From: Solirubrobacteraceae bacterium
GTDB taxonomy: Bacteria; Actinomycetota; Thermoleophilia; Solirubrobacterales; Solirubrobacteraceae
Assembly: GCA_031177685.1 (NCBI GenBank)
Contig: JAPSGI010000002.1
Location: 186,001-250,000, forward strand
Reading direction: 5' to 3'
DNA length: 64,000 bases
Position 1 is the first letter of the stretch. Each line of letters begins with the position of its first letter. The position numbers and the translations under genes were made by a program. Below are positions 3,625 to 41,097 of this stretch, in pieces. The notes under the pieces are model-generated. The model was not told the origin of the DNA. It ran no database searches and was given only the letters and a program-made list of their open reading frames with translations.

Positions 3625-4071
3625 ATGAGCGAGGAGAGCGCCGAGGAGGGGCTGCGCAGCCGCCTGACGCGTCAGGGCGAAGATGCCCTGGGAAAGCTGG
3701 CCCAGGACCTGCTGGAGAACCCGCTGGTCAACGGCGCGATCACCCGCGCGTTCGAGGCCCGCGAGAAGGCCGCCGCCGCGCAGGAGGTGGCGATGGGGGC
3801 GCTCAACCTTCCCTCGGCCGCCGACCTCGAGCGGCTGACGCGGCGCGTGCGGTCCGTCTCCCAGCGCCTGGAGGGCATCGAGGACGGGGTGGACCGCCTC
3901 GACGAGCGCCTGCAGGACGTCGCCCGCAACGGGCTGGCCGAGCAGCTGACCCGCATCGAGGAGCGCCTGGAGTCGCTGGCGCGCGACCTCGCCGCCCTGC
4001 GCGAGAGCGTGCCGGGGTCCACCGAGCCGGTCCCCGCCGGCCAGGAGCGCCTGCGGGTCCCCCAGGGCTGA
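3625..4071 (+). CDS. Small coiled-coil protein, phasin-like
   Basis: 148 residues, almost entirely predicted helix. The segment from about 65 to 125 shows heptad-like spacing (LERLTRRVRSVSQRLEGIED, then repeated RLDERLQD and RIEERLES), which suggests a coiled coil. The overall build (small, helical, amphipathic N-terminus with a basic/alanine-rich middle) resembles phasin or polyhydroxyalkanoate granule-associated proteins, but no diagnostic motif proves that. The start at 3625 follows a strong GGAGGAGGGG ribosome site. The stop overlaps the next ATG (TGATG), so the two genes are translationally coupled. Confidence 0.7.
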   Translation: MSEESAEEGLRSRLTRQGEDALGKLAQDLLENPLVNGAITRAFEAREKAAAAQEVAMGALNLPSAADLERLTRRVRSVSQRLEGIEDGVDRLDERLQDVARNGLAEQLTRIEERLESLARDLAALRESVPGSTEPVPAGQERLRVPQG

Positions 4072-4496
4072 TGGCGACCCCGTTCAAGTCGCCGGAGGAG
4101 TTCCGCGAGGTCATGGACCGGACCTTCGCGATGATGAGCGAGGACGCCGACATGGGGCCCAAGCTGCGCGAGGCCGACGTCCCGCAGCGCTTCGAGTTCG
4201 ACGACCTCGAGCTCGTCGTCAACATCCGCGCGGCGCGCACCGGCGAGGAGGGCGAGCTGCACTGGGAGTGGACCGATCGCGTCGACTGGGAGCCCAAGGT
4301 CCGCATGACGATGACCTCGGAGGTGGCCAACAAGTACTTCCAGGGACGCGAGAACGTGCCGATCGCGATCGCGCGCCGCCGCATCAAGGCGGGCGGCGAC
4401 GTCAAGTCCGCGCTCAAGCTCATTCCCATCACGAAGCCCCTCTACGAGCGCTATCGCGACATGGTGGAGGCGGACTACCCGCACTTGAGCATCTGA
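4071..4496 (+). CDS. SCP2-type lipid-binding domain protein
   Basis: 141 residues without signal peptide. The beta-rich middle (FEFDDLELVVNIRAARTGEE, then LHWEWTDRVDWEPKVRMTMT) followed by a helix and the pattern VPIAIARRRIKAGGDVKSALKLIPITKPLY matches stand-alone SCP2 sterol/lipid carrier domains, which end with a statement of low-level conserved Gly and helix packing against a hydrophobic tunnel. A ligand cannot be assigned. It is coupled by a one-base overlap to the coiled-coil gene; both may act at a lipid or storage-granule surface, which is inference. The promoter of a candidate small RNA begins ten bases after the stop. Confidence 0.65.
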   Translation: MATPFKSPEEFREVMDRTFAMMSEDADMGPKLREADVPQRFEFDDLELVVNIRAARTGEEGELHWEWTDRVDWEPKVRMTMTSEVANKYFQGRENVPIAIARRRIKAGGDVKSALKLIPITKPLYERYRDMVEADYPHLSI

Positions 4497-4505
4497 CCGG
4501 CGGCG

Positions 4506-4534
4506 TTGACTTCGGCGCGCCGGAGGAGTAGACA
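4506..4534 (+). promoter_or_regulatory. Sigma-70-type promoter for candidate small RNA
   Basis: TTGACT at 4506-4511 and TAGACA at 4529-4534 are separated by exactly 17 bases. This is the best -35/-10 pair seen in the window. The predicted start of transcription is near 4541. It faces a run of hairpins and no start codon with a ribosome site. Confidence 0.6.
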
Positions 4535-4540
4535 ACACCT

Positions 4541-4685
4541 CAAGAGTTCAGCAGGCCGGAGAGTGGGCGGCTCGACCGCCCGCCAGGCGCCGCCGCCCAG
4601 CGACGAGCGCCGTCGGCCGACGAAGCGGGCCGTGAGCCCGCAGCGGCGGGGTCTCCCTCGAGGCGGTCCCGCCGCTTCTCGTCTC
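4541..4685 (+). ncRNA. Candidate structured small RNA
   Basis: The stretch contains no coding-like frame but a series of compact hairpins: GGGCGG-CTCGA-CCGCCC (4565-4581), CGACG-AGCGC-CGTCG (4601-4615), GCGGGC-CGTGA-GCCCGC (4625-4641) and a final 9-bp stem AGCGGCGGG/CCCGCCGCT (4642-4676) followed by TTCTCGTCTC, which could terminate transcription. The three small hairpins all have 5-base loops. With the promoter at 4506-4534 the transcript would be about 140 nt. It does not match 6S, tmRNA, SRP RNA or RNase P features that I know. It could also be the leader of the downstream cyclase gene. Confidence 0.45.
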
Positions 4686-4731
4686 GGCGTCCGTTCGTCT
4701 GGGCGCCCGGTCTCTACGATCAGAGGTCCCC

Positions 4732-5910
4732 GTGAGCCCGCTGACCCTCAGCGAAGCCGCCGCGCGGGCGGGCGTGAGCCCCGCGACCCTGCGCCGCTGG
4801 GCCGACCAGGGCGTCATCCCTCAGTACGACGGCGCCTGGACCCCCTCCGCGACGGCGCACGCGCGCATCGTCGCGCGGCTGCGCGACCGCGGTCACTCGC
4901 TGGACGACATCCGGCGGGCCGGGGAGACCGGGCGGCTGGCCTTCGGCTACATCGAGGACCTCTTCCCGCCCCAGACGGACGGCCGTACGCTGGAGGAGGC
5001 GGCGCAGGACACCGGGCTGGAGCCGGCGCTGATCGAGCGCATCTACTCCACGGTGGGCTTCAGCGCCCACGCGCTGGAGAATGTCAGCGAGGACGACCTC
5101 CAGTTCCTGCGCTACGTCGCGGCCGTGCTCGCGGCGGGGTTCCCACTCGTGGCCTTCCTGCAGCTGCTGCGCGTGTACGGACAGGCGCTGGCCCAGCTCG
5201 CGGACGCCGAGGTCCGGCTGTTCCACCTCTACGTCCACGAGCCGCTGATGCGCGACGGCCTCGGCGGCCTGGAGATGGCGGAGGAGATGGAGGCGCTGGC
5301 GCGCGAGCTGCTGCCGCTCTCCTCGCCGATCATGGACCACGTCCACCAGCGCTTCCTCGCCCACTTCGTCGAGCAGGACGTGATCGGGCACATGGAGACC
5401 GACCTGGAGGGCGGCGAGCTCGACCTCGGGCGTCTGCGCGTGGCGATCGCCTTCGCCGACCTGGCCGGCTACACCCGGCTGACCGAGGAGCAGGGCGAGG
5501 AGCAGGCGCTGGACGCCGTGGAGCGCTTCGTGGAGTCCGTCGAGCACACGCTCCCCGACGACGCGCGCGTGATCAAGACGATCGGCGACGAGGTGATGGT
5601 GGTCGGCTCGGACCCCGCGGCGCTGACCGACTGGGCGGTCGGGTTCCAGGCGCTGCACGCCGAGCGGCCGCTGCCGCGCATCGGCGTCCACTACGGGGAG
5701 ACGCTGTACCGCGACGGCGACTACTACGGCCGCGAGGTCAACCTGGCGGCGCGCGTCGCGGCGCGCGCGGCGGGCGGCGAGGTGCTGGTCACCCGGCCGG
5801 TGGTCGAGCAGGCCGGCGGGCACCTGGAGTTCGAGCCCATCGGCGAGGTGCGGCTGAAGGGGTTCCAGCAGGTCACGGAGATCTTCGTGGCGCGCGGCGC
5901 GGAAGACTGA
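4732..5910 (+). CDS. MerR-type HTH fused to regulatory domain and class III nucleotide cyclase
   Basis: 392 residues, GTG start with a TACGAT -10-like box 11 bases upstream. Residues 1-70 form a MerR-like winged helix (LTLSEAAARAGVSPATLRRW). Residues about 80-215 (LEEAAQDTGLEPALIERIYS, then a helical block) resemble the regulatory domain of Rv1264-type adenylate cyclases. Residues about 225-390 are a class III cyclase domain with both metal Asp residues (AFADLAGYTRL and TIGDEVM), the substrate Lys (VIKTIGDE) and the catalytic Asn/Arg pair (GREVNLAARVAAR). It should make cAMP (or cGMP) from the nucleoside triphosphate in the cytoplasm. The adenine-selecting Asp of classic enzymes is replaced by Arg/Glu in YGREVN, so specificity is uncertain. 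Confidence 0.85.
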   Translation: MSPLTLSEAAARAGVSPATLRRWADQGVIPQYDGAWTPSATAHARIVARLRDRGHSLDDIRRAGETGRLAFGYIEDLFPPQTDGRTLEEAAQDTGLEPALIERIYSTVGFSAHALENVSEDDLQFLRYVAAVLAAGFPLVAFLQLLRVYGQALAQLADAEVRLFHLYVHEPLMRDGLGGLEMAEEMEALARELLPLSSPIMDHVHQRFLAHFVEQDVIGHMETDLEGGELDLGRLRVAIAFADLAGYTRLTEEQGEEQALDAVERFVESVEHTLPDDARVIKTIGDEVMVVGSDPAALTDWAVGFQALHAERPLPRIGVHYGETLYRDGDYYGREVNLAARVAARAAGGEVLVTRPVVEQAGGHLEFEPIGEVRLKGFQQVTEIFVARGAED

Positions 5911-5939
5911 CGCGTCGGCGCGGGTCCTACACTCGCAGC

Positions 5940-7250
5940 GTGGATCCCGACCGGCTGGTCCAGGAAGTTCGCGCCGGGGGCCTGTTGCCGGCCGGCCAGC
6001 CGGTGCTGGTCATGCTCTCCGGCGGGCGCGACTCCGTCTGCTTGCTCGACGTGGCCGTGCGGGTCGCCGGCGCCGGCGCCGTGTCGGCGCTGCACGTCGA
6101 CTACGGGCTGCGCGCGGAGGCCGCCGAGGACGCGGCGCACTGCGCGCGGCTGTGCGAGTCGCTGGGCGTTCCGCTGGAGACGGTCCGCCCCGCGCGCCCC
6201 GAGAGCGCCGGCAACCTGCAGGCGTGGGCGCGCGACGTGCGCTACGGCGCCGCGGCGCAGCTGGCGCTGCGCCTGCACGCCCGCGTTGCGGCGGGGCACA
6301 CCGCCACCGACCAGGCCGAGACCGTGCTGTACCGGCTGGCCGCCTCTCCGGGACGGCGAGCGCTGCTCGGGATGGCGCCGCGCGACGGGCGGCTCGTGCG
6401 CCCGCTGCTGAGCTTCACCCGCCAGGACACCGCGGACTACTGTCGCGCGCGGGGGTTCACCTGGCGCGAGGACCCGTCGAACTCCGATCGCTCTCTCTAC
6501 ACGCGCGCGCGCGTGCGTGAGGACCTGATGCCGGCGCTGCGCTCGCTGCACCCGGCCGCGGAGGCCAACGTGGTCCGCACCGCGCAGCTGCTGCGCGACG
6601 AGGCCGCGGTGCTCGACGCGCTGGTGGACGACGTGCTGGAGCGCCGCGACCGCATCGAGCTCGAGCGCCTGCGCGCGCTCCCGCCCGCGCTGGCGCGGCT
6701 CGTCGTGCGCCGCCTGGCCTACGACGATCCCGCGGCGGCGTCGCGCCTGGGCGAGCTGCTGGCGCTCGGCCGGACCGGCGGCTCGGCCTCGCTGGACCTC
6801 GGCGGCGGGTTGCGCGCGGTCGTCGAGTACGGCGCGCTGCGCTTCGCCGCGGGCCCGCGGCCGGAGCCGCCCGCGCCGGTGACGCTCGCGATTCCCGGCG
6901 CGGCGGCCTTCGGCGACTGGTCCGTCACGGCCCGCGAGGCGGCGCCGCCCGCGCCGGGCGCGGCCGGGGCCGACACCGGCGTGCTCGACGCCGGCGCGCT
7001 GACGGGCCCCGTCACCGTCCGCGCGTGGCGCGCCGGGGACCGGATGGCGCCGCTCGGGCTGGACGGCACCCGCGCCCTGTCGGACCTGTTCACCGACCGC
7101 CACGTCCCGCGCGAGCAGCGGCGCGTGATCCCGCTGCTGGAGTGCGACGGCGAGATCGCGTGGGTGCCCGGCGTGGCCACGGGGCAGCGCTTCGCCGTCA
7201 CGGCGTCCACGGAGGAGGCGGTCCTGGTCACCGCGCGGGCGCCGGGGTGA
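5940..7250 (+). CDS. tilS: tRNA(Ile) lysidine synthetase TilS
   Basis: 436 residues. TilS converts C34 of tRNA-Ile(CAU) to lysidine using ATP and lysine, so that it reads AUA. The N-terminal PP-loop is present (VLVMLSGGRDSVCLLD, residues about 22-37) with the GHTATDQAETVLYRL motif further on; a C-terminal TilS domain follows (VRAWRAGDRMAPLG...ALSDLF). Length is in the family range. The GTG start is preceded by a TACACT box six bases upstream and no Shine-Dalgarno, consistent with a leaderless message. The stop overlaps the next gene as GTGA. It begins the housekeeping block tilS-hpt-ftsH. Confidence 0.95.
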   Translation: MDPDRLVQEVRAGGLLPAGQPVLVMLSGGRDSVCLLDVAVRVAGAGAVSALHVDYGLRAEAAEDAAHCARLCESLGVPLETVRPARPESAGNLQAWARDVRYGAAAQLALRLHARVAAGHTATDQAETVLYRLAASPGRRALLGMAPRDGRLVRPLLSFTRQDTADYCRARGFTWREDPSNSDRSLYTRARVREDLMPALRSLHPAAEANVVRTAQLLRDEAAVLDALVDDVLERRDRIELERLRALPPALARLVVRRLAYDDPAAASRLGELLALGRTGGSASLDLGGGLRAVVEYGALRFAAGPRPEPPAPVTLAIPGAAAFGDWSVTAREAAPPAPGAAGADTGVLDAGALTGPVTVRAWRAGDRMAPLGLDGTRALSDLFTDRHVPREQRRVIPLLECDGEIAWVPGVATGQRFAVTASTEEAVLVTARAPG

Positions 7251-39605: not shown

Positions 39606-40298
39606 GTGATCGTCTACGGGGCCAACCCCGTTCGCGAGGCGCTGCGCGGCCCGCGCGCGGTCGAGCGGGTGTGGGCGACGGAGCGGGTGGCGCGCGAGGC
39701 GTGGCTCCGGGACGCCCCGGTCGCGGTGGCCGACGTCGCGGAGATCCAGCAGCGCTGCGGGTCGGATGCGCACCAGGGCGTGTGCGCGAGCGCGGACCCC
39801 TACCGCTACGCCGATCCGGCGGCGCTGCTGGCGGGAGACGAGCCGCTCGTCGTGGCGCTGGACGAGGTGACGGATCCGCAGAACCTCGGCGCGATCTGCC
39901 GCACCGCCGAGGTGGCGGGCGCGACGGGCGTGGCGATCCCGCAGCGCCGCTCGGCCGAGGTCACGCCGGCCGTGTGCAAGGCGTCGGCGGGCGCGGTCGA
40001 GCATCTCGCCGTGGCGCGGGTGCCCAACCTCGCCGACTTCCTGTCCGACGCCAAGGCGGCCGGCTGCTGGTGCTACGGGGCCGACGCCGCGGCGACGGTG
40101 GGATACGACCAGCCCGACTTCCAGGGGGGCGTCGTCGTGGTCCTGGGCGCCGAGGGGAGGGGGCTGCGCCCCCGTGTCGCCGCCGCGTGCGACGAATTGC
40201 TCGCGATCCCGCGGCGCGGCCGGATCGAATCGCTCAACGTGAGCGCCGCCGCCGCCGTCCTGGTGTACGAGATCCTGCAGCGCCGCGGCGGGGCTTGA
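39606..40298 (+). CDS. rlmB: 23S rRNA Gm2251-type methyltransferase (TrmH/SpoU family)
   Basis: 230 residues. SPOUT methyltransferase with motif 1 ALDEVTDPQNLGAICRTAE, motif 2 VVLGAEGRGLRPRVAAACDE and motif 3 IPRRGRIESLNVSAAAAVLVYE, plus the N-terminal substrate-binding domain. GTG start ten bases after cysS. Position between cysS and sigH is the same as in Bacillus subtilis. Confidence 0.94.
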   Translation: MIVYGANPVREALRGPRAVERVWATERVAREAWLRDAPVAVADVAEIQQRCGSDAHQGVCASADPYRYADPAALLAGDEPLVVALDEVTDPQNLGAICRTAEVAGATGVAIPQRRSAEVTPAVCKASAGAVEHLAVARVPNLADFLSDAKAAGCWCYGADAAATVGYDQPDFQGGVVVVLGAEGRGLRPRVAAACDELLAIPRRGRIESLNVSAAAAVLVYEILQRRGGA

Positions 40299-40449
40299 CA
40301 GGACTCCATAACTGTGGGACCGTGCCCGCCACATAAGGTTGGACTCGAGGGTTATGGGACTTGAGAGTTCAGCGAGGGTGCGGCGCCAGGGGAGGTAGCG
40401 CGCCTAGAGCAGAACCGGGCGATTTGCTCGGGGAAAGGTCGTTCCGCTC
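40299..40449 (+). other. AT-richer leader upstream of sigH
   Basis: About 150 bases with lower GC than the neighbours. It holds an inverted repeat CCATAAC (40306-40312) / GTTATGG (40351-40357), and AGAGTTCAGC (40364-40373), a 10-base stretch also found near the start of the candidate RNA at 4544. A GGGGAAAGG-type ribosome site precedes the sigH ATG. A TTGACA at 40295-40300 overlaps the rlmB stop but has no convincing -10 partner. Confidence 0.45.
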
Positions 40450-41097
40450 ATGGCTCGTTTCTCCCCTAAGGCTCAAGCTGAAGGCCAGCTTGACGACGGT
40501 TATCTCATCGCGCTGGCCAAGCAGGGCAGCGCTCCGGCCTACGACGCGATCGTGCGGCGCTACTACGGATTCGTCCGGCTGAAGGCGTCGTCGTACTTCC
40601 TCGCGGGCGGGGATTCCGACGATCTCGTCCAGGAGGGCCTCGTCGGCCTCTACAAGGCCGTCCGCGACTACCGGACGGACCGCGAGTCCAGCTTCCGCAA
40701 CTTCGCGGAGCTGTGCATCACGCGCCAGATCATCACCGCGGTCAAGACCGCCTCGCGCAACAAGCACGTCCCGCTCAACCGCTACGTGTCGTTCTCCAAC
40801 AGCCCCGCCGGCGCGGCGGAGCCCGAGCCGACGCTCGACGAGATCCTGCCGGGTCCGACCGCGCACGACCCGATCAACGTGGCGATCTCCTCCGAGGAGC
40901 TGCGCGCGCTGATCGCCTGCCTGTCCACGGTGCTGTCCGAGCTGGAGTCGCGCGTGCTCGGCCTGTACCTCGACGGGCACTCCTACCAGGAGATCGGCGA
41001 GCAGATCGGATGCGAGGCCAAGACGGTGGACAACGCCCTGCAGCGCGTCAAGCGCAAGGTGGCGGCGCACCTGGACTCGCGGGCCGTGCCCGCGTAG
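40450..41097 (+). CDS. sigH: RNA polymerase sigma factor, SigH (sigma-30) type
   Basis: 215 residues. Region 2 (GGDSDDLVQEGLVGLYKAVRDY, then SFRNFAELCITRQIITAVKTA) and region 4 (SELESRVLGLYLDGHSYQEI, then KTVDNALQRVKRK) closely match Bacillus subtilis SigH, including the LCITRQIITA core. In Bacillus it starts the sporulation cascade and stationary-phase genes. It lies after rlmB exactly as in Bacillus, which supports orthology. Non-endospore-forming actinobacteria would use it for another transition; its targets are unknown. Confidence 0.93.
   Translation: MARFSPKAQAEGQLDDGYLIALAKQGSAPAYDAIVRRYYGFVRLKASSYFLAGGDSDDLVQEGLVGLYKAVRDYRTDRESSFRNFAELCITRQIITAVKTASRNKHVPLNRYVSFSNSPAGAAEPEPTLDEILPGPTAHDPINVAISSEELRALIACLSTVLSELESRVLGLYLDGHSYQEIGEQIGCEAKTVDNALQRVKRKVAAHLDSRAVPA

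What the first reader, a model, noticed from the sequence alone, without database searches (positions are those of the whole stretch)
4506..4685. Candidate small RNA with a TTGACT-N17-TAGACA promoter and terminator
A promoter at 4506-4534 drives about 140 nt made of three 5-base-loop hairpins and a terminal stem, with no coding frame. AGAGTTCAGC near its 5' end also occurs before sigH, where it may mark a shared pairing site. It does not look like a known structured RNA.
Basis: partly seen in the sequence, partly recalled or inferred. Interest (0 to 1): 0.7.

Follow-up and report, generated by a model that had tools for sequence, protein, structure and literature searches.

The report
New conserved Solirubrobacterales structured small RNA
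The gap before the cyclase gene holds a real, previously unlisted RNA of about 140 bases that many members of one order of soil bacteria keep with the same promoter, fold and place in the genome; what it does is not yet known.

Summary
The promoter TTGACT-N17-TAGACA (4506-4534) and a roughly 140-nt transcript (about 4541-4681) belong to a conserved RNA family. I collected 45 members from Solirubrobacterales (Solirubrobacteraceae, Conexibacter, Patulibacter, Thermoleophilaceae MAGs). The promoter is conserved in 44/44 testable loci (2.8% background). A 44-sequence, sequence-only alignment supports a three-way junction (P0 enclosing P1 and P2), a P3 hairpin with a conserved CG in its loop, and a GC-rich terminal stem P4: 94.6% of cells paired, 17 pairs with changes on both sides, 0/500 shuffles as good. 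No Rfam 15 family matches. It is not SRP RNA or 6S RNA, which occur at separate loci. It is single copy and was found only in this order. It heads the [cyclase]-tilS-hpt-ftsH cluster in 43/45 loci. In two genomes the next gene is convergent, yet the RNA is intact, so it is probably its own small-RNA gene. A leader or attenuator role cannot be excluded: in three genomes the cyclase start lies 3-4 nt after P4. The shared AGAGTTCAGC 'pairing site' is at chance level and not conserved. No expression data were available.

The parts
4506..4511 (+). -35 element TTGACT of the RNA promoter
   Evidence: Sequence; TTGAC present at this place in 44 of 44 relatives against 2.8% of background windows
4529..4534 (+). 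-10 element TAGACA, 17-nt spacer (relatives mostly TAnnn-type at 17-18 nt)
   Evidence: Sequence; alignment of 44 upstream regions
4541..4681 (+). The RNA, about 140 nt (5' end inferred about 7 nt after the -10; model span 4546-4681; 3' end after P4)
   Evidence: blastn, covariance models R1 and R2; ends inferred, not mapped
4554..4558 (+). P0, 5' strand GGCCG (closes the three-way junction)
   Evidence: CG / UG / UA pair types at the third pair; 94% of cells paired
4563..4583 (+). P1 hairpin GTGGGCGG-CTCGA-CCGCCCGC, variable length in relatives, strongly covarying
4586..4611 (+). P2 hairpin GGCGC(CG).../...(CG)A-GCGCC; apical part varies and is shortened in distant members
4614..4618 (+). P0, 3' strand CGGCC
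4625..4641 (+). P3 hairpin GCGGGC-CGTGA-GCCCGC; loop starts with a CG kept in nearly all members
   Evidence: pair types CG, GC, UA, AU at the sixth pair
4642..4676 (+). P4 terminal stem, 12 bp, GC-rich, weak T-rich tail: candidate intrinsic terminator
   Evidence: 95.8% of cells paired, 6 pairs with changes on both sides; tail composition
4071..4496 (+). Upstream 141-aa protein gene, no Pfam or NCBIfam family; upstream neighbour in 25 of 45 loci
4732..5910 (+). Downstream gene: MerR-type HTH + adenylate cyclase regulatory and catalytic domains; next gene in 33 of 45 loci
5928..5933 (+). TACACT 6 nt before the tilS GTG (5940): leaderless-type -10, suggests tilS has its own promoter here

Best explanation
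4506-4681 is the gene of a single-copy structured small RNA found only in Solirubrobacterales. Housekeeping RNA polymerase starts at the conserved TTGAC-N17-TAnnn promoter. The roughly 140-nt product folds into a three-way junction (P0/P1/P2) with a short unpaired 5' tail and a P3 hairpin, and transcription mostly stops at P4. I think it most likely acts in trans as a folded RNA that a protein or a small ligand recognises through the junction, the GACGnA linker and the CG in the P3 loop, because conserved sequence sits in helices, junction and P3 loop rather than in a long single-stranded seed. Shown: family, fold, promoter sequence, single copy, restricted distribution, location, retention when the downstream gene is not co-directional. 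Inferred: that it is transcribed, that P4 terminates, and that it acts in trans through a partner.
For: Conserved noncoding core in other genera. Covariation: 13 sequences, 10 pairs changed on both sides, 0/500 shuffles; 44 sequences on an unfitted MAFFT alignment, 17 such pairs, 0/500 shuffles, far above partner-slid controls. Promoter 44/44. One match per genome in 35 of 151 order genomes; in 296 phylum genomes hits only in this order. In genomes G019 and G130 the cyclase gene is gone and the next genes (LuxR/PspC cluster) are convergent by one shared rearrangement (75.5% identity over 3.1 kb). The two RNAs differ at 21% of positions but keep the fold (one double change, three single changes that keep the pair, one broken), and one of them is the best-scoring member of the family. 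Other genomes lack the RNA while the 141-aa gene and cyclase gene are contiguous (20-80 nt apart), so the cluster does not need it. No covarying alternative pairing that would undo P4 was seen. tilS (12/32) and cyclase (7/29) have their own leaderless-type -10 in a minority of loci, above background.
Against: It sits directly before the cyclase or tilS gene, same strand, in 43 of 45 loci, while the upstream neighbour is kept in only 25, which is what a leader would show. In L004, L051 and G012 the cyclase start codon is 3-4 nt after P4, leaving no room for another promoter. P4 lacks a proper U-tract. No transcript data. The decoupled cases are two species of one genus and represent one event.
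Confidence: 0.55

Rival explanations
1. It is a 5' leader (attenuator or orphan riboswitch-like element) of the cyclase-tilS-hpt-ftsH cluster: the promoter drives the cluster, P4 is a regulated terminator, and the junction domain senses something that changes readthrough. A short RNA would be the by-product.
For: Immediately upstream of and co-directional with cyclase (33) or, where cyclase is lost, tilS (10) in 43 of 45 loci, through several apparently separate losses of cyclase, while the upstream gene varies. Start codon 3-4 nt after P4 in three genomes. P4 tail is weak, which would allow readthrough.
Against: RNA kept intact in G019 and G130, where the next gene is convergent and tilS is 4 kb away or not on the contig. 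No covarying antiterminator; P4 paired in 95.8% of cells and in the minimum-energy fold of all 44. tilS in the window has its own -10. Clean loss of the RNA in several genomes with the genes still present.
Confidence: 0.32
2. A base-pairing trans-acting sRNA whose unpaired 5' tail (AGGCAnCA-type) or GACGnA linker pairs with target mRNAs. This is a sub-case of the trans reading, so its probability overlaps with that of the best explanation.
For: Own promoter and terminator-like end, unpaired 5' tail of about 15-25 nt with a recurring AGGCA.
Against: The tail is only loosely conserved; the strongest sequence conservation is in helices and junction. The one proposed seed, AGAGTTCAGC, is not conserved.
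Confidence: 0.2
3. A divergent member of a known housekeeping RNA (6S, SRP RNA, Ms1).
For: 6S is not detected in the tested genomes of the window's own family, so a missing 6S might have been this one. SRP RNA and 6S are also small and usually single copy.
Against: SRP RNA found on contig 13 of the same genome and in 20 of 21 genomes searched. 6S found at other loci in six genomes that also carry this RNA (G050, G054, G055, G107, G118, G132). Fold is a branched junction, not a rod. Ms1 is about 300 nt and linked to a HAD hydrolase gene (PMC9130861; length partly from my own knowledge). No Rfam match.
Confidence: 0.04
4. Chance GC-rich hairpins plus the terminator of the upstream gene.
For: z-score only -1.35 in a GC-rich context.
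Against: Cross-genus conservation, covariation and promoter conservation.
Confidence: 0.01

Closest known systems
6S RNA (RF00013) and Ms1 (Actinobacteria)
   Same: Stand-alone structured sRNA genes of bacteria, recognised by fold and gene neighbourhood
   Different: Those are longer rod-like RNAs; this one is about 140 nt, a three-way junction plus two hairpins, different neighbourhood, and coexists with 6S at another locus (PMC9130861)
Orphan riboswitch / leader RNA candidates found by comparative genomics (e.g. PMC6429828)
   Same: Branched aptamer-like domain followed by a terminator-like stem just before a conserved gene cluster
   Different: Persists with a convergent next gene, no covarying antiterminator, no known ligand link
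Bacterial small SRP RNA (RF00169)
   Same: Single-copy small RNA of similar size; CAGGCCGGA resembles part of the SRP loop by eye only
   Different: True SRP RNA is elsewhere in the same genome; no Rfam match here

Membership tests
Any Rfam 15 family | Covariance-model match at or near the gathering score | tested here: not met
   No match at E <= 5 for the window region; none at the RNA in 18 relatives at E <= 1
6S RNA (RF00013) | CM match; long rod with central bubble | tested here: not met
   No CM match here; real 6S at other loci in genomes that also have this RNA; branched fold
Bacterial small SRP RNA (RF00169) | CM match with conserved apical loop | tested here: not met
   SRP RNA of this genome is on contig 13
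Ms1 | About 300 nt, next to a HAD hydrolase gene | tested here: not met
   Size and neighbourhood differ (PMC9130861)
Ms1 | Binds RNA polymerase core | not testable with these tools
   Needs bench work
Stand-alone structured sRNA gene | Own conserved promoter | tested here: met
   44 of 44; promoter activity itself not measured
Stand-alone structured sRNA gene | Conserved fold with compensatory changes | tested here: met
Stand-alone structured sRNA gene | Kept independently of the neighbouring genes | tested here: inconclusive
   Upstream gene varies and two genomes have a convergent next gene, but 43 of 45 keep the downstream cluster
Stand-alone structured sRNA gene | Discrete transcript | not testable with these tools
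   No expression data held
Riboswitch / attenuator leader | Located in the 5' UTR of regulated genes | tested here: inconclusive
   True by position in 43 of 45; false in G019 and G130
Riboswitch / attenuator leader | Two mutually exclusive conserved structures | tested here: inconclusive
   Only P0-P4 are supported by covariation; invariant columns cannot be judged
Riboswitch / attenuator leader | Ligand binding | not testable with these tools
   Needs bench work

The most novel reading that the evidence does not exclude
An undescribed RNA class specific to Solirubrobacterales whose conserved three-way junction binds a metabolite or protein and, where it precedes the cyclase-tilS-hpt-ftsH genes, couples that signal to their transcription, while in some species it has become (or remained) a free trans-acting RNA.
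Probability: 0.2. Interest if true: 0.8.

Novelty: new member of a known kind. Interest (0 to 1): 0.6.

Why it matters
Solirubrobacterales are common soil bacteria, and a text search of the open-access library found no paper that joins this order with an RNA motif. A single-copy RNA with a conserved promoter, a covariation-supported junction and a fixed place before tilS, hpt and ftsH is a concrete new family that could be deposited in Rfam and tested in cultured strains (Conexibacter, Patulibacter). If it senses a ligand or binds RNA polymerase or another protein, it would add a regulator to a lineage in which 6S RNA is hard to find.

Tried and rejected
Thermodynamic significance alone: z = -1.35, not significant. 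AGAGTTCAGC as a seed shared with the sigma-factor gene: chance level and not conserved. Known RNA: no Rfam match; SRP and 6S occur elsewhere; Ms1 differs. Antiterminator pairing of P2's GCCGCC, or of the P3 arms, with P4: considered by eye; not kept when P3 becomes GCCGGG/CCCGGC (L013, L014) or when P2 loses GCCGCC, and no covariation supports it. Leader peptide starting at the GTG of P1: frame broken by a stop in L002 and by indels elsewhere. Matches of the pattern scan in Rhodococcus, Pseudonocardia, Streptomyces and Roseiarcus: no covariance-model support, chance. Weak hits outside the order (G197, G311, E 0.003-0.006 each in a search of 299 genomes): expected by chance; G197's is away from its tilS-hpt locus. 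Paper searches found no description of this RNA; only open-access papers were searchable.

Full report
What is there. The window lies on contig 17 of a 3.15-Mb, GC-rich genome; its relatives in the named collection are Solirubrobacterales, class Thermoleophilia. The gap 4497-4731 lies between a gene for a 141-aa protein without a Pfam or NCBIfam family (4071-4496) and a gene for a protein with a MerR-type HTH and adenylate-cyclase regulatory and catalytic domains (4732-5910). tilS, a PrsW protease gene, hpt and ftsH follow on the same strand.

Is it real? By folding energy alone it would not stand out (z = -1.35), and a strict terminator scan misses the terminal stem because its T-tract is weak. 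Comparison decides it. A blastn search of 60 relatives found the core, about 4549-4676, in other genomes, best E 4e-29 in the same genus and 7e-27 in another. RNAalifold on the first 13 members returned a three-way junction without guidance, with ten pairs changed on both sides and 0/500 shuffles as good. A model from these found one copy in each of 35 of 151 genomes of the order, E down to 1e-22. A pattern scan of 84,980 genomes added members from named Conexibacter and Patulibacter and unnamed Solirubrobacterales and Thermoleophilaceae; hits in other groups had no model support.

The fold. On a MAFFT alignment of 44 sequences, not fitted to the structure, the structure has 94.6% of cells paired, 17 pairs with changes on both sides and 94 such cells against 24 in shuffles, 0/500 shuffles as good, and partner-slid controls far below. 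In window coordinates: P0 4554-4558/4614-4618 closes the junction; P1 4563-4570/4576-4583 varies in length and covaries most; P2 4586-4592/4604-4611 loses its apical part in distant members; P3 4625-4630/4636-4641 has a loop beginning with CG in nearly all; P4 4642-4653/4665-4676 is the terminal stem. The strongest covarying column pairs that can pair lie in P1, P3, P4 and upper P2. P2 and P0 vary mainly on one side (G-C to G-U), with some C-G to U-A exchanges in P0 and upper P2, so these two helices rest on weaker evidence than the others. The window's own minimum-energy fold is a rod 15 kcal/mol below the conserved fold. In the 44 sequences folded singly, P0-P4 appear in 30 to 44 of the minimum-energy structures. 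A few members (G012 and G032, one genus; G154) keep promoter, P3 and P4 but have replaced the junction interior.

Promoter and end. All 44 loci tested have TTGAC at the expected place with a mostly TAnnn-type -10 at 17-18 nt, against 2.8% of random windows for the -35. The six or so bases after P4 are T-enriched but do not form a good U-tract. A mycobacterial study, known here only by its title in a reference list, states that mycobacterial RNA polymerase needs a U-tract and is helped by NusG at poor terminators (Czyz et al. 2014, seen). So P4 as a terminator is likely but not shown.

Neighbourhood. In 43 of 45 loci the RNA lies before, and on the same strand as, the cyclase gene (33) or, where that is lost, tilS (10, two of them with a longer stretch in between). 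The 141-aa gene is upstream in only 25. In L004, L051 and G012 the cyclase start codon is 3-4 nt after P4, so cyclase mRNA there must pass through P4. This is the best argument for a leader. Against it: in G019 and G130 the cyclase gene is gone and a convergent LuxR/PspC cluster follows by one shared rearrangement, with tilS 4 kb further on in G130. The RNAs still keep the fold while 21% of positions differ, and G019's is the top scorer of the family. Several genomes lack the RNA entirely with the flanking genes 20-80 nt apart. tilS has a leaderless-type -10 of its own in 12 of 32 loci, the window included (TACACT 5928-5933). I saw no covarying alternative pairing that would open P4, though invariant columns cannot be judged.

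Not a known RNA. No Rfam family matches the window region at E <= 5, nor the RNA in 18 diverse members at E <= 1. SRP RNA is on contig 13 of this genome. 6S RNA is present at other loci in six genomes that carry this RNA. Ms1 is longer and sits by a HAD hydrolase gene (PMC9130861). Open-access literature searches found no description.

How it most likely works. My best reading (0.55) is a stand-alone structured small RNA that acts in trans, probably by binding a protein or ligand; a leader or attenuator of the downstream cluster is the main rival (0.32). Within the trans reading, pairing with mRNAs through the 5' tail is possible, so the listed probabilities overlap. The existence of the conserved structured RNA itself I hold at about 0.97.

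Limits. The genome searches score only a few candidates per genome after a loose first look, so counts of carriers are lower bounds and divergent members outside the order could be missed. Loci from related genomes are not independent, and the two decoupled genomes represent one event. Ends of the transcript and its existence in cells are inferred.

Noticed in passing
window 40296-40450: Upstream of the sigma-factor gene (about 40450-41097) there is a TTGACA-type promoter-like sequence (40296) and a roughly 150-nt leader that contains the second AGAGTTCAGC; whether this leader is conserved was not tested.
   Followed up: no
window 5928-5940: TACACT 6 nt before the tilS GTG: a leaderless-type promoter inside the cyclase-tilS junction; the same signal type precedes tilS in 12 of 32 related loci.
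   Followed up: partly
L116 (G012) 1591-1684, L016 (G032) 1458-1556, L119 (G154) 2702-2754: Variant members that keep promoter, P3 and P4 but have replaced the P1/P2 junction interior; they might show which part is essential.
   Followed up: partly
G000, G002, G005, G008 and other genomes of the window's family (f1): 6S RNA is not detected by RF00013 in any of the f1 genomes tested but is in family f3 and some f2 of the same order; either lost or too divergent.
   Followed up: no
L090 (CAMCUD010000003.1): A MAG titled Bifidobacterium breve carries this RNA with Solirubrobacterales-like flanks; the record appears mislabelled.
   Followed up: no
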